In this document: positions 3,233 through 52,415 of the stretch, piece by piece
How positions within the stretch are numbered: the stretch's first letter is position 1
Layout: each line of letters begins with the position of its first letter
IMG/VR virus record: IMGVR_UViG_3300018917_000004
Coordinates: 1-52,415 of that record
Source: a virus
Direction: 5' to 3' (one strand)
Length of the DNA stretch: 52,415 bases
Made by a program: the position numbers and the translations under genes
Notes under the pieces: model-generated
Seen by the model: the letters and a program-made list of their open reading frames with translations, nothing else
Told to the model about the DNA's origin: nothing
Database searches by the model: none

Positions 3233-3258
3233 AGTATAGCACAATGCTTCGCATTACT
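3233..3258 (-). promoter_or_regulatory. Extended -10 promoter of the FEN nuclease gene
   Basis: Minus-strand TGC-TATACT (TATACT at 3233-3238). The upstream block AATGCTTCGCATTAC (3243-3257) is repeated almost exactly at 37473-37487, in front of the membrane-protein operon promoter, so these two promoters are related copies. Confidence 0.55.
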
Positions 3259-3331
3259 GCCACTAATATAACCGATATGATATTGTGATAACAATGTAAA
3301 TTTAGGTAATTAGAGCCGTGAGGCTCACAAG

Positions 3332-3935: not shown

Positions 3936-3965
3936 CGCTATCGATAACCTAATTTAACCTAAAGC

Positions 3966-3991
3966 ACCCTGTGTCCTTGTGATAACAGGGT
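3966..3991. terminator. Hairpin terminator carrying GTGATAACA (copy 2)
   Basis: Arms ACCCTGT/ACAGGGT with the loop containing TTGTGATAA, followed on the plus strand by TTATTTATTG. It lies between the convergent genes 3732-3935 and 4018-4662 and can serve both strands. Confidence 0.75.
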
Positions 3992-4017
3992 TATTTATTG
4001 TAATGGTAAGCGCTAGC

Positions 4018-4662: not shown

Positions 4663-4750
4663 TTTGTTTACTATATAGCTATATAGTTAATAATTTGCCT
4701 TACGGTGCCTAAGAAAACTAAATGCACTTTAAGGTACACTCTGCTACCTT

Positions 4751-4845
4751 CGCACACACAGTGGTACCACTTTTTATGATTGAACTACAACCCGCACTGG
4801 CACTAGGTCTTACCGTTTACTACGTATGGTACCATATGGTACCAC
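4751..4845. promoter_or_regulatory. Cluster of GGTACC-centred palindromes (locus 1)
   Basis: AGTGGTACCACT at 4760-4771, preceded by CGCACACAC, then ATGGTACCAT (4826-4835) and ATGGTACCAC (4836-4845). The extended word CACACACAGTGGTACCACTTTT recurs in part at 19333-19356 and 38480-38498. The palindromes look like dimeric-protein sites; their spacing of 76-94 bp is similar at all three loci. Confidence 0.5.
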
Positions 4846-4904
4846 GTATCAAAGTATACCCGGTATACGTAAGGGTAAATGAGGGCATTAAGAGACCGCG
4901 ATAA
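4776..4904 (+). CDS. Possible 42-aa membrane peptide
   Basis: A short frame opens at an ATG right after the AGTGGTACCACTTTTT palindrome. The peptide has one hydrophobic stretch (LALGLTVYYVWY) then a basic, Val/Tyr-rich tail (RIKVYPVYVRV). There is no ribosome-binding site, and the frame extends upstream to 4722. Similar palindromes precede short frames at 19360 and the membrane protein near 38535, the only reason to take it seriously. Confidence 0.25.
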   Translation: MIELQPALALGLTVYYVWYHMVPRIKVYPVYVRVNEGIKRPR

Positions 4905-4952
4905 CACCTGTACTACTTCATAACTATCAAGTAATATAAGGTATAAAAGTGA

Positions 4953-4980
4953 ACCCCTGTATCATTGTGATAACAGGGGT
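4953..4980. terminator. Hairpin terminator carrying GTGATAACA (copy 3)
   Basis: Arms ACCCCTGT/ACAGGGGT, loop ATCATTGTGATA. It lies in the gap left of the minus-strand gene 5059-5232 and downstream of the possible 42-aa frame. Confidence 0.7.
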
Positions 4981-5058
4981 CATTGTGGGTTAGAGGTTAA
5001 TCACGGCCACTGCCGCGACTGTCGTCTTCAGGGTCAATGAATATCATTGTGATAACAA

Positions 5059-5232
5059 CTAACTAAAGTGTGAATAGTACTTGACGTAACAACTGTCACA
5101 ATCACCGTTACCAGGGCAATCTAGACCTAAAGGGCAACTAGAACATACTAGCGTCCTGACAACACCCAACTGACTAACGGTACCCTTAGGGGCCGCGTGT
5201 CGTACTGTTTTCATTGAGGACTTGCGAGACAT
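5059..5232 (-). CDS. Cys-rich small protein, 57 aa (probable zinc-binding knuckle)
   Basis: A short frame between the long RNA unit and the hairpin at 4953. The N-terminus is basic (MSRKSSMKTVRHAAPKG), and residues 30-48 hold CSSC...CPGNGDCDSC, i.e. CxxC-x5-C-x5-C-x2-C, five cysteines of which four could bind Zn or Fe. Size and layout suit a zinc-ribbon-like DNA- or RNA-binding or anti-host protein. It has its own TATAAT (minus strand, near 5265) just past the RNA terminator at 5275-5292, and a weak AGG ribosome-binding site. Confidence 0.6.
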   Translation of the reverse strand: MSRKSSMKTVRHAAPKGTVSQLGVVRTLVCSSCPLGLDCPGNGDCDSCYVKYYSHFS

Positions 5233-5274
5233 AATAGTGACCTAAGAAACAATACTTTTATTATATACTAAAAT

Positions 5275-5292
5275 ACCCCGGTTTCCCAGGGT
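5275..5292 (-). terminator. GNRA-capped terminator at the 3' end of the long RNA unit
   Basis: On the minus strand ACCCTGG-GAAA-CCGGGGT forms a 7-bp stem (one G-U) with a GAAA tetraloop, followed by ATTTTAGTATA. It ends the ~970-nt gene-free stretch that starts at the promoter at 6249-6277. Confidence 0.65.
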
Positions 5293-6188
5293 TCATTAGG
5301 ATATTTAGTTCACTGCGAGGTTATTTGATGCCCTCTAGCCTTCCCTATTGCTTACTAGGCGTGTCAGTGACTCATCGTTGAGTCTAACAGAGACCGTTGG
5401 CTCATGATAGTCGAATATGGGTTCTCAGTTGCCCTACCTGCTCGGTTGTATAGTTTTCACTATTCGCTAGAAGTGGCGTTATTGACCTACGCTCACATTG
5501 AGCCGTTATTATTCACCCTAGCGCATCGTGGCTTTATGGGCCATTACTTCACCTTTTAGACCGTTAGTATCACCATCGCCCTACGTTGCACTACGGGCCT
5601 AAGTTCAAGATATTACTTCGAGTACTTAGAGCCGTTAGGCTCATTGGGGTCATAGCGTTGGCCGGTACTTCTTAAGAGCCGCGTGTTTCCTACGTTCTAT
5701 GATGCATCGCTGCATTGCACGGCTTGCCAAGGACATTTAAGTTATGCAAGTATTCTTATCTGGCATGGTAACCAAATATCAAACCGATTGCTACCAGTAC
5801 CTTAGAGGCCGTGACCACTCTGAGGTATTGATTGCTTCGGTGTGCCTTGTGCCCTTATTGGCATCAGTGCGACTGTTTCACTCTTGGGTAACTGTACTCA
5901 CTAAGGAGTCACGGTCACATGGTAGGTATAATTACTTACGAGTTAGTTAGGTCTCATCAGTGCGCCGGTTGGCTTACGTGTCAACACAACAGAGCCGGTT
6001 ATCACTGAATCTACTGAAAGCCTTAGGGTAATTAAGGCGGTTGGTGTTACTTCGTGTCTATAAGGGGTTATCGGTGAGCCTATTAGCGACCTATGCGAAC
6101 AGCTATCCTATCGTCAAAGCGTGGACTCTAGCAACTCGGTCAAGCTCGTGATGTTCCCTAGGCGACTCTAGGTAACGAGTGGTACTTG

Positions 6189-6227
6189 GTGCGACTGTGG
6201 CCTTCTGAGCTTCGAGTCTTGGTTAAC
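6189..6227 (-). repeat. 39-nt RNA element shared with 16506-16544
   Basis: Plus-strand GTGCGACTGTG, 11 variable bases, then TTCGAGTCTTGGTTAAC. Both copies start 22-28 nt downstream of a strong minus-strand -10. The outer GACT/AGTC can pair, and the variable centre pairs differently in each copy (GCU/GGC here, ACCU/AGGU at 16517), as compensatory change would predict. A degraded third copy is at 5867-5893. Confidence 0.6.
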
Positions 6228-6248
6228 CTTGTTTCCTCTCATGTCACT

Positions 6249-6277
6249 AATATAACGCTATTCGCCCTAGTGTGCAA
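6249..6277 (-). promoter_or_regulatory. Strong sigma70-like promoter of the long RNA unit
   Basis: Minus-strand TTGCAC (6272-6277), 17-bp spacer, TATATT (6249-6254). It points into the gene-free region 5275-6242, not toward a coding sequence. Confidence 0.7.
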
Positions 6278-6464
6278 CCTTTTAACCATCATTGTTAATT
6301 ATGTGTACGCAGGTTAGCTATAAAGCACTTTAATATAATTGTGATAACAAAGCTGCGCTTTAAGACCTAATTTAATTCATGTGATAATGTGATAACAAAA
6401 GTTAACTATATATAAATGAGGATAAAAGAGCCGTAAGGCTCATTGATAGAAACAGAGGTAAGCG

Positions 6465-22643: not shown

Positions 22644-22820
22644 CTACTCGTCTGAATCGTCGTAATCACGGTCAGACTGGGGGCCGCGTGTGCTATCGAG
22701 GTCGTTGTCAACATCGCCGCCACGACCGCCTTCATAAGCAAAGAAGGTACCCTCTTCATCACGAGCGTCGCGGTCTGCATTACCGGCCCCGTTACCATCG
22801 TCACTTCCTGAGTAAGTCAT
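22644..22820 (-). CDS. Asp-rich, low-complexity acidic protein, 58 aa
   Basis: GAGG lies 8 nt before the ATG at 22820. The protein is almost entirely Asp, Gly, Glu, Arg and Ser (opening MTYSGSDDGNGAGNADRDARD, closing DRDYDDSDE) and is probably disordered. Such short acidic proteins can be DNA mimics or anti-restriction factors, but this is only suggested by composition. Its promoter has the TAACTGATGAG site. Confidence 0.6.
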   Translation of the reverse strand: MTYSGSDDGNGAGNADRDARDEEGTFFAYEGGRGGDVDNDLDSTRGPQSDRDYDDSDE

Positions 22821-22850
22821 GTGTGTAACCTCGTCTCTCTTTACTCTTCT

Positions 22851-22913
22851 AATATAACACCGTTTGCCCTGCTGTGCCATAATATTACATCAGCATAACT
22901 GATGAGTTTACAG
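22851..22913 (-). promoter_or_regulatory. Promoter with upstream TAACTGATGAG site (acidic protein gene)
   Basis: Extended -10 TGT-TATATT (22851-22856) and ATAACTGATGAGTTTACAG at 22895-22913, starting 39 bp upstream of the -10, the same geometry as at 11504 and 13160. Confidence 0.65.
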
Positions 22914-27424: not shown

Positions 27425-27490
27425 GGCACTTCGGCCCTCAGGTTATTTAATACCCTAAGTATAACATATATCATTATATAGTAATAAAAT

Positions 27491-27516
27491 ACCCTGTTAT
27501 CACAAGGACACAGGGT
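27491..27516. terminator. Hairpin terminator carrying TGTTATCAC (copy 7)
   Basis: Arms ACCCTGT/ACAGGGT downstream of the major capsid gene on the minus strand, followed on that strand by ATTTTATTAC. Confidence 0.8.
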
Positions 27517-37435: not shown

Positions 37436-37463
37436 AAGTCATCCAACTGTTTACTATATCTCT

Positions 37464-37519
37464 AATATAGCACAATGCTTCGCATTACAACCGTATTGTG
37501 CCAGTTATAAAGTGGCACA
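37464..37519 (-). promoter_or_regulatory. Promoter and inverted-repeat operator of the membrane/ATPase operon
   Basis: Extended -10 TGC-TATATT (37464-37469) on the minus strand. Operator TGTGCCA-GTTATAAAG-TGGCACA (37497-37519) has perfect arms and lies between this promoter and the divergent gene starting at 37582. Confidence 0.7.
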
Positions 37520-39097: not shown

Positions 39098-39446
39098 GTC
39101 AATTAATGTGTCCAGTTTACAAAAGTCGATATCAGGGGCAGCAGAGGATATAAGTGGTAATGTAAGTAACTTTCGAGAAATACTGAGTACATCGCCTCAA
39201 CTATCACCCTTCGAGTACCCCCCGGCCGTACAGAGTGGCATTGATGCCCTGGAAACCGTAGGGGTCACGCTGCCATCAGAGGATGAACTAGTAGCCATCG
39301 CTAACGACCAAATTAGCGCCGTATTTGACGAGTTAGCCCCTGAGCTAAACAGTGCCCTTGATGTCGTTGAGGATGCCTTAGGCTTCATCACTGGCGCTAG
39401 TGACGACGCGGCCACCATGCTGAATAAGATAACCTGGTTACTTTAA
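39096..39446 (+). CDS. Acidic helical protein, 116 aa, unknown function
   Basis: AGGAG lies 5 nt before the ATG at 39096. The protein is acidic and helical (DELVAIANDQISAVFDELAPELNSALDVVEDALGFI) with a Pro/Ser-rich middle. No family recognised. The stop is followed by a GGCAC-UGC-GUGCGC hairpin and then the terminator at 39484-39509. Confidence 0.6.
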   Translation: MSINVSSLQKSISGAAEDISGNVSNFREILSTSPQLSPFEYPPAVQSGIDALETVGVTLPSEDELVAIANDQISAVFDELAPELNSALDVVEDALGFITGASDDAATMLNKITWLL

Positions 39447-39483
39447 GGCACTGCGTGCGCTAAGTACACTATGAAAACTAAAT

Positions 39484-39509
39484 ACCCTGTTATCACAAGG
39501 ACACAGGGT
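39484..39509. terminator. Hairpin terminator carrying TGTTATCAC (copy 8)
   Basis: Arms ACCCTGT/ACAGGGT between 39096-39446 (plus) and the minus-strand gene 39562-39708; identical in its core to copies 7 and 10. Confidence 0.75.
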
Positions 39510-39561
39510 GCTTAGTGTTATTTAGTTGTTAGTTAATTAAAGGCCGCTCACCTCCCTAGTG

Positions 39562-39708
39562 TTACTTAGTTTCCTTAGTGGGTTTTGGTTGGCCCTCAGG
39601 CACTACCGGGGTATTGGTTGGCTTTGAGATACGAACGTCCTCCTGTTGAATCTGGTCTAGCACGCTTTGTACTCGGTCAGCTTGTGAATCAGTGGCCACT
39701 ATTGTCAT
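39562..39708 (-). CDS. Small charged protein, 48 aa
   Basis: AGGAG lies 5 nt before the ATG at 39708. The peptide has an amphipathic helix (DSQADRVQSVLDQIQQEDV) and a Pro/Lys-rich tail (TNTPVVPEGQPKPTKETK). It is the only convincing gene downstream of the promoter at 40518-40546, about 800 nt away. Function unknown. Confidence 0.55.
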   Translation of the reverse strand: MTIVATDSQADRVQSVLDQIQQEDVRISKPTNTPVVPEGQPKPTKETK

Positions 39709-39719
39709 TAGCTCCTTCT

Positions 39720-40511
39720 TGTTGACTAGGGTGTACAGGGTGACCTAATGGTCAACGGTAGTTATATTACTACCTGCTTTCTCATAATGTGACTTTGTTA
39801 TAACAGAGGCATTGTGAGCCTCAGGGCCCCAAGTTGACTTGCACAACCTCTAATTACTCCTTCTGGCATCTTGACTACAATGTAGGTTTATTAGCTGAAC
39901 TGAGTTCTTAGGAAACTATCGGGGCCGTGAGTGAGACCTTAGGGTACTAAATGGCTTAGTAGGCGCATAGAGTACCCTCGTATCTCTATAATGTTAACTA
40001 GCTTTCACCGCCTCTACTCGGTTAGTTCTAGTTGACATATGGTAACTTAATTACTTAGTAGCTTTGCTTGCCTCTGTGTATCTCAGGTGGTCTCTGTTTA
40101 TCATCAGCGGTAGAGGTTGACACCAATAACTCACTTTGACTTACTTTGACACTCGTTGACTCACTTGGCTATTTTAGCTTTCAGTTACGTTTGTTTGAAT
40201 CAGGTGAAATAAGGGAACCTGGCAACCCTAATATACTTATTAGGCTATATTAGACCCTTAGGCGTTTTGAGTAGCCGCCTTTCCTACCTAGTCCTTTAGG
40301 TGAACTAGAACCTTTATGACCCTAAGGTCAGTTGGTTTTGCCACGTCCCTTGATTCAAGTGGCACTTCCTAGTCTTAATGCTGGGTACCAGTTATCAGGT
40401 GTGGCGTGAGGTTTCCAGGGTTTCTACGGCTTCCACATTTTACTGCGGCTTCCAGACTATCTCGTTTAAACGGCGTCTGAGCTTTTCGCTTTCACCCTCT
40501 CTGTCCCTCAC
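39720..40511 (-). ncRNA. Second candidate long structured RNA (~0.8 kb)
   Basis: The stretch between 39708 and 40555 has no gene on either strand but begins with a consensus minus-strand promoter (40518-40546). The transcript folds well by eye: CAGAC...GTCTG around CGTTTAAACG (near 40450-40480), GCCAC...GTGGC enclosing CTTG-AAT-CAAG (near 40340-40365), CTAGT...ACTAG (near 40285-40310), GGCG...CGCC (near 40260-40280), AATATA...TATATT (near 40230-40252) and GGTAGT...ACTACC (39757-39774). The 3' end is uncertain, and the RNA may also be a long leader for 39562-39708. Confidence 0.5.
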
Positions 40512-40517
40512 TTCTCT

Positions 40518-40546
40518 AATATATCGCGCTTAGCCCTGAGTGTCAA
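40518..40546 (-). promoter_or_regulatory. Consensus sigma70-type promoter of the second long RNA unit
   Basis: TTGACA (40541-40546), exactly 17 bp, TATATT (40518-40523) on the minus strand: the best-matching promoter in the window. Confidence 0.8.
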
Positions 40547-40554
40547 CCATTTAA

Positions 40555-40785
40555 TCATCGAGTTTTATCTATGGTCACCTGTTCAGCCATAGACTTAGCA
40601 TCGAAACCAAAGCGCGCTAGAGCCTCACGCTTTAACAGACGCTTAATGTAAGCTCCGAGTTCATTACCGTCACTATCAGCAGCCAAAGCCCTGTATAACA
40701 TTAGCTCATTAGGTGTAAACAGCACCTCAACAACTTCCTTCTTAGCACGGTATTTCTGATTAGATTCAGGGTTAGCGCGTCCCAT
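40555..40785 (-). CDS. Small basic protein, ribbon-helix-helix-like, 76 aa
   Basis: The ATG at 40785 has AGGAG 5 nt upstream. After a short basic head (MGRANPESNQKYRAKK), EVVEVLFTPNELMLYRALAADSDGNELGAYIKRLLKREALARFG reads as strand-helix-helix, the RHH arrangement of small phage repressors. It lies next to the strongest promoter in the window (40518-40546), which it might control. DNA binding is inferred. Confidence 0.5.
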   Translation of the reverse strand: MGRANPESNQKYRAKKEVVEVLFTPNELMLYRALAADSDGNELGAYIKRLLKREALARFGFDAKSMAEQVTIDKTR

Positions 40786-48057: not shown

Positions 48058-48121
48058 AAATTAACCTCTCGGTTGAAACTATGTCCTCATTATAGCACAA
48101 TGTACCTTTAGATAATAAAAT

Positions 48122-48147
48122 ACCCTGTTATCACAAGGACACAGGGT
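48122..48147. terminator. Hairpin terminator carrying TGTTATCAC (copy 10)
   Basis: Arms ACCCTGT/ACAGGGT, between the kinase promoter region and the gap 48148-48322. Confidence 0.7.
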
Positions 48148-51461: not shown

Positions 51462-52367
51462 TTAGAACTGAGGGCTATAGGACTCAGTTAGGGCTGAGCT
51501 AAGGTCACCGGGCCGGTTAGAGGCATTGCTGATAATGAAGGTAATGATTGAATCAAGGGCCGGTGGGAGACCCTCAGGGTACAATGATTCAATCTGGGGT
51601 GCATAGCGGTTAACCATGTACTCTAGTTTCATGAGTTCTTCATTATAGGCCCCTGAGTAGTGTGAGGGTGCCTTAGGGTATTGCCAATGTCGATTGGTGG
51701 TTAAAGTGCCTACCAGTTTTTCAAATTTATTCACCAGTGGGCTAGTGTTATCCATTTTGCACTTTTTGAATGTTTCAATGAATGACTCACGTAGTCTGTG
51801 GTCAACACCTTCTATCGCTGTAATCTTGAGGCCCGGTATGCTCTCTAGTTCCCGGCAGAAATGGGAGGCGACTGCATTACCTAGTATATGCCACGTCCAC
51901 GGTGTCTTTCGGGCTACGTTCATATACTCTTGTCTTACTTTACCTTCCTTAGGTGCCTTACACGCTATAGCGGCTGCTAGGGCCCTCATAGAGACCTCTG
52001 CTAGCTCACGAGGGTATGCAATATCACTTGGTTGATACAAACGGCCCTTGATATCATCCATGACATTATGGTACTTGTTATCACGTCGGTTATAATCATA
52101 ATAGCCGTCATCGTCAGACCAAGTGAACCCTGATACCTCTAAGTATCTGTCAACGGCCATACGTATCAACCAACACGTCAACAGGTGATATTGTTCATCA
52201 AAGTGGATGTCTTCTAGAACGTTTTCCCACATGGTTTTCAGGTTAGCGTTAGAGACATCAGGTAAGTTATACTGCTCTGAGATTTCCTCTTTACTCTTGG
52301 TACGCAGGAAGCACGCACGGTCACGCATACCCTGGTTAGCCGATAGCAACGCATCAGTTGAGATATC
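51462..52367 (-). CDS. SF3/D5-like replicative helicase, C-terminal part
   Basis: Continuation of the gene at 1-1056. The frame from 52334 leftwards encodes QGMRDRACFLRTKSKEE onward to the stop at 51462 (290 residues), and 52335-52367 repeats the sequence of 1-33, encoding ISTDALLSAN. The apparent start further right (52412) lies in the fold-back copy and is an artefact: residues upstream of that point are reverse-complement coding. The C-terminal region is helical with DDDGYYDYNRRDNKYHN in the middle. Stop codon 78 nt from the operator at 51416. Confidence 0.8.
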   Translation of the reverse strand, partial: DISTDALLSANQGMRDRACFLRTKSKEEISEQYNLPDVSNANLKTMWENVLEDIHFDEQYHLLTCWLIRMAVDRYLEVSGFTWSDDDGYYDYNRRDNKYHNVMDDIKGRLYQPSDIAYPRELAEVSMRALAAAIACKAPKEGKVRQEYMNVARKTPWTWHILGNAVASHFCRELESIPGLKITAIEGVDHRLRESFIETFKKCKMDNTSPLVNKFEKLVGTLTTNRHWQYPKAPSHYSGAYNEELMKLEYMVNRYAPQIESLYPEGLPPALDSIITFIISNASNRPGDLSSALTESYSPQF

Positions 52368-52415
52368 GGCTAACCAGGGTATGCGTGACCGTGCGTGCTT
52401 CCTGCGTACCAAGAG
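52294..52415. repeat. Terminal fold-back: 52-bp perfect inverted repeat with 18-bp spacer
   Basis: 52294-52345 and 52364-52415 are exact reverse complements. The spacer and inner arm carry the 34 bases also found at 1-34. Since the helicase frame continues perfectly from position 1 to 52334, the last 47 bases are best read as an assembly or library fold-back, the true circle being about 52,334 bp. Confidence 0.85.

What the first reader, a model, noticed from the sequence alone, without database searches (positions are those of the whole stretch)
39720..40546. Second long gene-poor unit behind a consensus promoter
TTGACA-17-TATATT at 40518-40546 is the best promoter in the window, yet it points into ~800 nt without a gene, dense in nested inverted repeats. 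Only a 48-aa gene follows. This is either a second large RNA or an exceptionally long leader.
Basis: partly seen in the sequence, partly recalled or inferred. Interest (0 to 1): 0.75.

Follow-up and report, generated by a model that had tools for sequence, protein, structure and literature searches.

The report
Phage's promoter-driven, gene-free RNA unit
In a probably complete 52-kb phage genome, a strong promoter reads through about 790 bases that encode no protein but fold better than chance before reaching one 48-residue gene, so this is a candidate large structured phage RNA, although no relatives were found with which to prove it.

Summary
On the minus strand, TTGACA-17-TATATT (40546-40518) starts a unit of about 1.03 kb: ~790 nt with no coding signal in any frame, then a 48-aa gene with a Shine-Dalgarno sequence (39708-39562), then a terminator (39500-39485). 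The promoter is one of three of a family with a conserved spacer (also 6268-6247 and 22870-22849; 0.09 expected). It is tied for best at 11/12, not uniquely best. The gap folds better than dinucleotide shuffles (-235 vs -203 kcal/mol, z -4.1, 0/100), and the excess ends where the 48-aa gene begins. But it is only 2.6 sd beyond other windows of this genome, local windows are weak, and the other strand also scores z -3.4. No Rfam family, no phage or plasmid DNA match and no close relative were found, so covariation could not be tested. The 5.3-6.2 kb unit shares this promoter (54 nt, 80%) and the layout, but its body is not detectably homologous and its minus strand folds no better than chance. 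Best reading: a transcription unit dominated by a long structured noncoding RNA, free-standing or 5' leader. Filing it as GOLLD or ROOL is not supported.

The parts
40518..40546 (-). sigma-70-type promoter TTGACA-17-TATATT, inferred start of transcription near 40511
   Evidence: spacer/-10 context shared with two other sites in the genome
40406..40511 (-). predicted 5' domain closed by GTGAGG/CCTCAC, with three internal helices
   Evidence: pair probabilities 0.78-0.99; single-sequence prediction only
39724..40374 (-). predicted main folded domain, closed by long-range helix GACTAGG/CCTAGTC (p 0.95), with inner 9-bp helix ACAGAGGCA/TGCCTCTGT (40077-40069 : 39811-39803, p 0.96) and several arms
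   Evidence: whole-region folding z -4.1
39796..39805 (.). TGTTATAACA, palindromic variant of the genome-wide word TGTGATAACA, overlapping the 3' strand of the 9-bp helix
39562..39708 (-). 48-aa gene (MTIVATDSQADRVQSVLDQIQQEDVRISKPTNTPVVPEGQPKPTKETK), SD AAGGAG; no known family
39485..39500 (-). intrinsic-terminator-like hairpin CCTTGTGATAACAGGG followed by TATTTAGTTTT, a module repeated at 3962-3997, 27487-27516 and 48118-48147
5275..6277 (-). companion unit: promoter of the same family (TTGCAC-17-TATATT), ~970 nt without gene, terminator 5292-5275
   Evidence: body not detectably homologous
22849..22870 (-). third promoter of the family; here it drives an acidic ~57-aa ORF after a ~25-nt leader

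Best explanation
This is one phage transcription unit on the minus strand. A strong promoter of a phage-specific family of three starts near 40511, and the transcript runs ~1.03 kb to the terminator at 39500-39485. Its first ~790 nt are noncoding and fold into a multi-branched RNA that ends just before the ribosome-binding site of a 48-aa gene. I think it most likely that the RNA itself is the product: a large structured RNA made in infection, with the small gene carried on its 3' tail, working in the general manner of large ornate phage RNAs. Shown: promoter sequence, absence of coding, the small gene's SD and codon usage, terminator sequence, excess folding. Inferred: that it is transcribed, that the fold is real, that the RNA rather than the 48-aa protein is the point, and any function.
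For: Promoter with spacer conserved in three places. No coding in any frame. MFE -235.4 vs -203.1 +/- 8.0, 0 of 100 shuffles. In 150-nt windows z averages about -1 over the gap and turns positive in the 48-aa gene and beyond, so the folded part ends at the gene. Long-range helices with p 0.95-0.96 close the domain right before the SD. RNA strand is A-rich and T-poor (A 0.34, T 0.22), like the companion unit. A second ~1-kb gene-free unit in the same genome has the same promoter family and its own terminator.
Against: Only one sequence: no homologue in 50,697 phage records, 72,556 plasmid records or Rfam, and no close relative of the phage in IMG/VR or bacterial genomes, so no covariation test. 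The excess is 2.6 sd against other windows of this genome, local windows are weak (one of z -3.3), the complementary strand also scores z -3.4, and the fraction of well-defined pairs is ordinary. The companion unit shows no folding excess on its minus strand.
Confidence: 0.45

Rival explanations
1. Exceptionally long regulatory 5' leader: the 48-aa protein is the product and the ~790 nt fold controls its translation or RNA stability.
For: The 48-aa gene has a good SD and codon usage; the closing helix of the folded domain ends directly upstream of the SD; the third promoter of the family drives a small acidic protein.
Against: 790 nt is very long for a 147-nt gene; the SD is largely unpaired in the predicted fold, so no obvious switch; the companion unit has no such gene before its terminator.
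Confidence: 0.25
2. No function as RNA: spacer or remains of deleted or decayed genes left between a promoter and the small gene it serves; the hairpins are by-products.
For: No relatives and no covariation; moderate folding excess; body of the companion unit not homologous and not structured on its minus strand.
Against: The rest of the genome is about 84% coding and such stretches are usually lost; no residual coding signal in any frame; 0/100 shuffles fold as well.
Confidence: 0.2
3. A DNA-level element (replication origin or protein-binding region) whose palindromes act in duplex or single-stranded DNA.
For: Both strands fold better than chance; contains one palindromic site TGTTATAACA.
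Against: No convincing iteron array within the region, no clear GC-skew switch, and it is neatly flanked by promoter, SD and terminator of one strand.
Confidence: 0.1

Closest known systems
GOLLD RNA (PMC12286853)
   Same: Phage or prophage-borne, ~800 nt, extensive multi-branched predicted fold, made from its own promoter (inferred here)
   Different: No match to any Rfam model even at E 10; no tRNA in the genome, whereas GOLLD often lies near tRNA islands; no covariation support
ROOL RNA (PMC12286853)
   Same: Large phage RNA of unknown function
   Different: No Rfam match; longer than ROOL (659 nt for the solved one); no tRNA island
Long structured 5' leaders of phage or bacterial mRNAs
   Same: Promoter, structured untranslated region, SD, small gene, terminator in one unit
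   Different: Far longer than the gene it would control; no known riboswitch or leader family found

Membership tests
GOLLD / ROOL | Sequence-structure match to the Rfam covariance model | tested here: not met
   cmscan: none at gathering threshold for the whole window; none up to E 10 for 39400-40700
GOLLD / ROOL | Often encoded near tRNA genes (association, not strictly required) | tested here: not met
   ARAGORN: 0 tRNA genes in the window
GOLLD / ROOL | Homo-oligomeric RNA particle | not testable with these tools
   needs native gel or cryo-EM
Large structured phage noncoding RNA (general kind) | No protein coding over several hundred nt | tested here: met
Large structured phage noncoding RNA (general kind) | Own promoter and terminator | tested here: met
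   sequence matches only; no transcript data
Large structured phage noncoding RNA (general kind) | Fold better than composition-matched sequence | tested here: met
   z -4.1, 0/100; but 2.6 sd against the genome's own windows
Large structured phage noncoding RNA (general kind) | Compensatory base changes among homologues | not testable with these tools
   no homologue found
Long mRNA leader | Translated gene downstream in the same unit | tested here: met
   48-aa ORF with SD and native codon usage, before the terminator; translation itself not shown
Long mRNA leader | SD masked or switchable in the predicted fold | tested here: inconclusive
   unpaired probability over the SD is 0.26-0.96, largely open; the bases just before ATG are more paired

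The most novel reading that the evidence does not exclude
A new class of large (~800-1000 nt) structured RNA of a phage most closely related to cyanophages, present twice in one genome (39.7-40.5 and 5.3-6.2 kb) under a dedicated promoter family, unrelated to GOLLD, ROOL or any Rfam family.
Probability: 0.22. Interest if true: 0.75.

Novelty: new member of a known kind. Interest (0 to 1): 0.42.

Why it matters
Very few large phage RNAs are known, and those that are (GOLLD, ROOL) have no established function. If this one is transcribed and folded, it adds an independent case in a different phage lineage, and a second unit under the same promoter in the same genome gives a built-in comparison.

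Tried and rejected
Hidden or recoded protein: every frame is stop-rich and without codon signal. Known RNA: no Rfam match. tRNA or tmRNA: none. Copy of a sequence elsewhere in the genome (DGR template, repeat array): only the promoter, the terminator and short words recur. Homology of body with the 5.3-6.2 kb unit: lenient alignment gave z 3.3-3.7, but unrelated pairs scored up to 3.9 with the same setting, strict alignment gave 0.8, and folding profiles do not align better than shuffles. Relatives: TerL, portal, MCP and neighbour searches in IMG/VR and bacterial genomes gave only distant hits (about 40% TerL identity at best) without the region; 7 promoter-pattern hits and 4 repeat-word hits in IMG/VR show no kinship to this phage beyond a single terminase match (L099) and one weak match (L003). 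The closest annotated phage, Leptolyngbya phage Lbo402-yong5, shares 13 detected proteins and has no comparable annotated gap. A first whole-contig folding scan timed out and was replaced. A paper search for large cyanophage noncoding RNAs found nothing on point.

Full report
What the window is. The window is the whole of one IMG/VR virus record of 52,415 bases. It encodes TerL, portal, capsid, sheath, tape-measure and baseplate proteins, a family-A DNA polymerase and a cytosine methyltransferase. Its nearest annotated relative is Leptolyngbya phage Lbo402-yong5 (TerL 39%, 13 proteins detected), so a cyanobacterial host is likely but not shown. The last 52 bases repeat 52294-52345 in reverse, and bases 52335-52345 equal the first 11 bases of the contig (sequence). 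The record therefore looks like a nearly complete circular map with a fold-back artefact at its end.

The observation. The promoter is TTGACA-17-TATATT at 40546-40518. Five sites of the window score 11 of 12, where shuffles give 1.0 +/- 1.2, so it is joint best. Its credibility rests on the shared context: AGGGCNAANNGCGNTATATTAG occurs at 40537-40516, 6268-6247 and, with one mismatch, 22870-22849, where 0.09 matches are expected. The match between the first two extends over 54 nt at 80%. At 22.8 kb the promoter has only a ~25-nt leader before a small acidic ORF, so this promoter family is not a mark of noncoding RNA as such.

No gene. With ORFs chosen by the codon usage of the phage's own genes, 39709-40554 is an 846-nt gap. 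It is exceeded only by 4663-6464, which holds the companion unit, and by the cut gene at the contig start. The best 40-codon stretch in the gap scores 0.07 bits per codon, against a mean of 0.24 for real genes. The 48-aa ORF at 39708-39562 does look real: 0.35 bits per codon (99th percentile of wrong-frame stretches 0.27) and AAGGAG before ATG. It has no match in phages, PHROGs or Pfam. A hairpin with a T-rich tail at 39500-39485 closes the unit; this terminator module occurs in near-identical form three more times in the genome.

Folding. The 802 nt on the transcribed strand fold at -235 kcal/mol against -203 +/- 8 for 100 dinucleotide shuffles (z -4.1; 0 as low). The opposite strand gives z -3.4, the companion unit -0.1 (minus) and -2.9 (plus). 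An earlier run with only 20 shuffles gave z -5.8; the larger run is the one to use. Compared with 52 windows of equal length from the same strand of the same genome, the excess (-32) is 2.6 sd out and would rank second. In 150-nt steps z is about -1 through the gap, with one window at -3.3, and becomes positive once the 48-aa gene begins. Well-supported helices form a 5' domain (40511-40406) and a main domain (40374-39724) closed by a 7-bp long-range helix just before the SD, with a 9-bp helix spanning 257 nt inside. These are single-sequence predictions, and the share of confident pairs is ordinary for this genome.

Relatives. None was found that would allow a covariation test. DNA searches of phages and plasmids and Rfam down to E 10 were empty. 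Scans with TerL, portal, capsid and a neighbouring protein, with the promoter motif and with the repeated terminator words in IMG/VR, and with TerL in bacterial genomes, gave only distant terminase-level kin without this region.

The companion unit at 5.3-6.2 kb has the same promoter family, a similar length (~970 nt to its terminator at 5292-5275) and no gene. Its body cannot be aligned to this one beyond chance by sequence (strict z 0.8) or by folding profile. The two share control elements and layout; common descent of the RNAs is not shown.

Interpretation. The evidence supports a single ~1.03-kb transcription unit in which ~790 noncoding, moderately but significantly structured nucleotides precede a 48-aa gene. 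I favour the RNA as the functional product (0.45), over a regulatory leader (0.25), a nonfunctional remnant (0.2) and a DNA element (0.1). GOLLD and ROOL are the nearest known things in size, setting and style (PMC12286853), but membership was tested and not met. What it does is unknown, and the proposed manner of working is analogy only.

Noticed in passing
whole window, e.g. 1206, 3978, 6388, 11619, 27495, 39488, 48126: The word TGTGATAACA occurs 52 times exactly (0.15 expected), on both strands, 28 of them in the ~16% of the genome that is noncoding, often inside terminator-like hairpins; the palindromic variant TGTTATAACA occurs 4 times. It could be a dispersed protein-binding site (stoperator-like) or an iterated uptake-type word.
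   Followed up: partly
52294-52415 and 1-11: Perfect 52-nt inverted repeat at the contig end, and the first 11 bases of the contig equal 52335-52345: probable circular map of ~52.3 kb plus a fold-back assembly artefact.
   Followed up: partly
22644-22880 (-): Third promoter of the family precedes a small acidic ORF (MTYSGSDDGNG...) of unknown function.
   Followed up: partly
3245-3270 (-) and 37462-37490 (-): A second promoter-like box with the palindrome ATGCGAAGCAT followed by TGTGCTATA is repeated.
   Followed up: no
4663-6464: 1.8-kb gene-poor stretch; its minus-strand unit 6242-5270 has promoter and terminator but no folding excess on that strand, while the plus strand scores z -2.9.
   Followed up: partly
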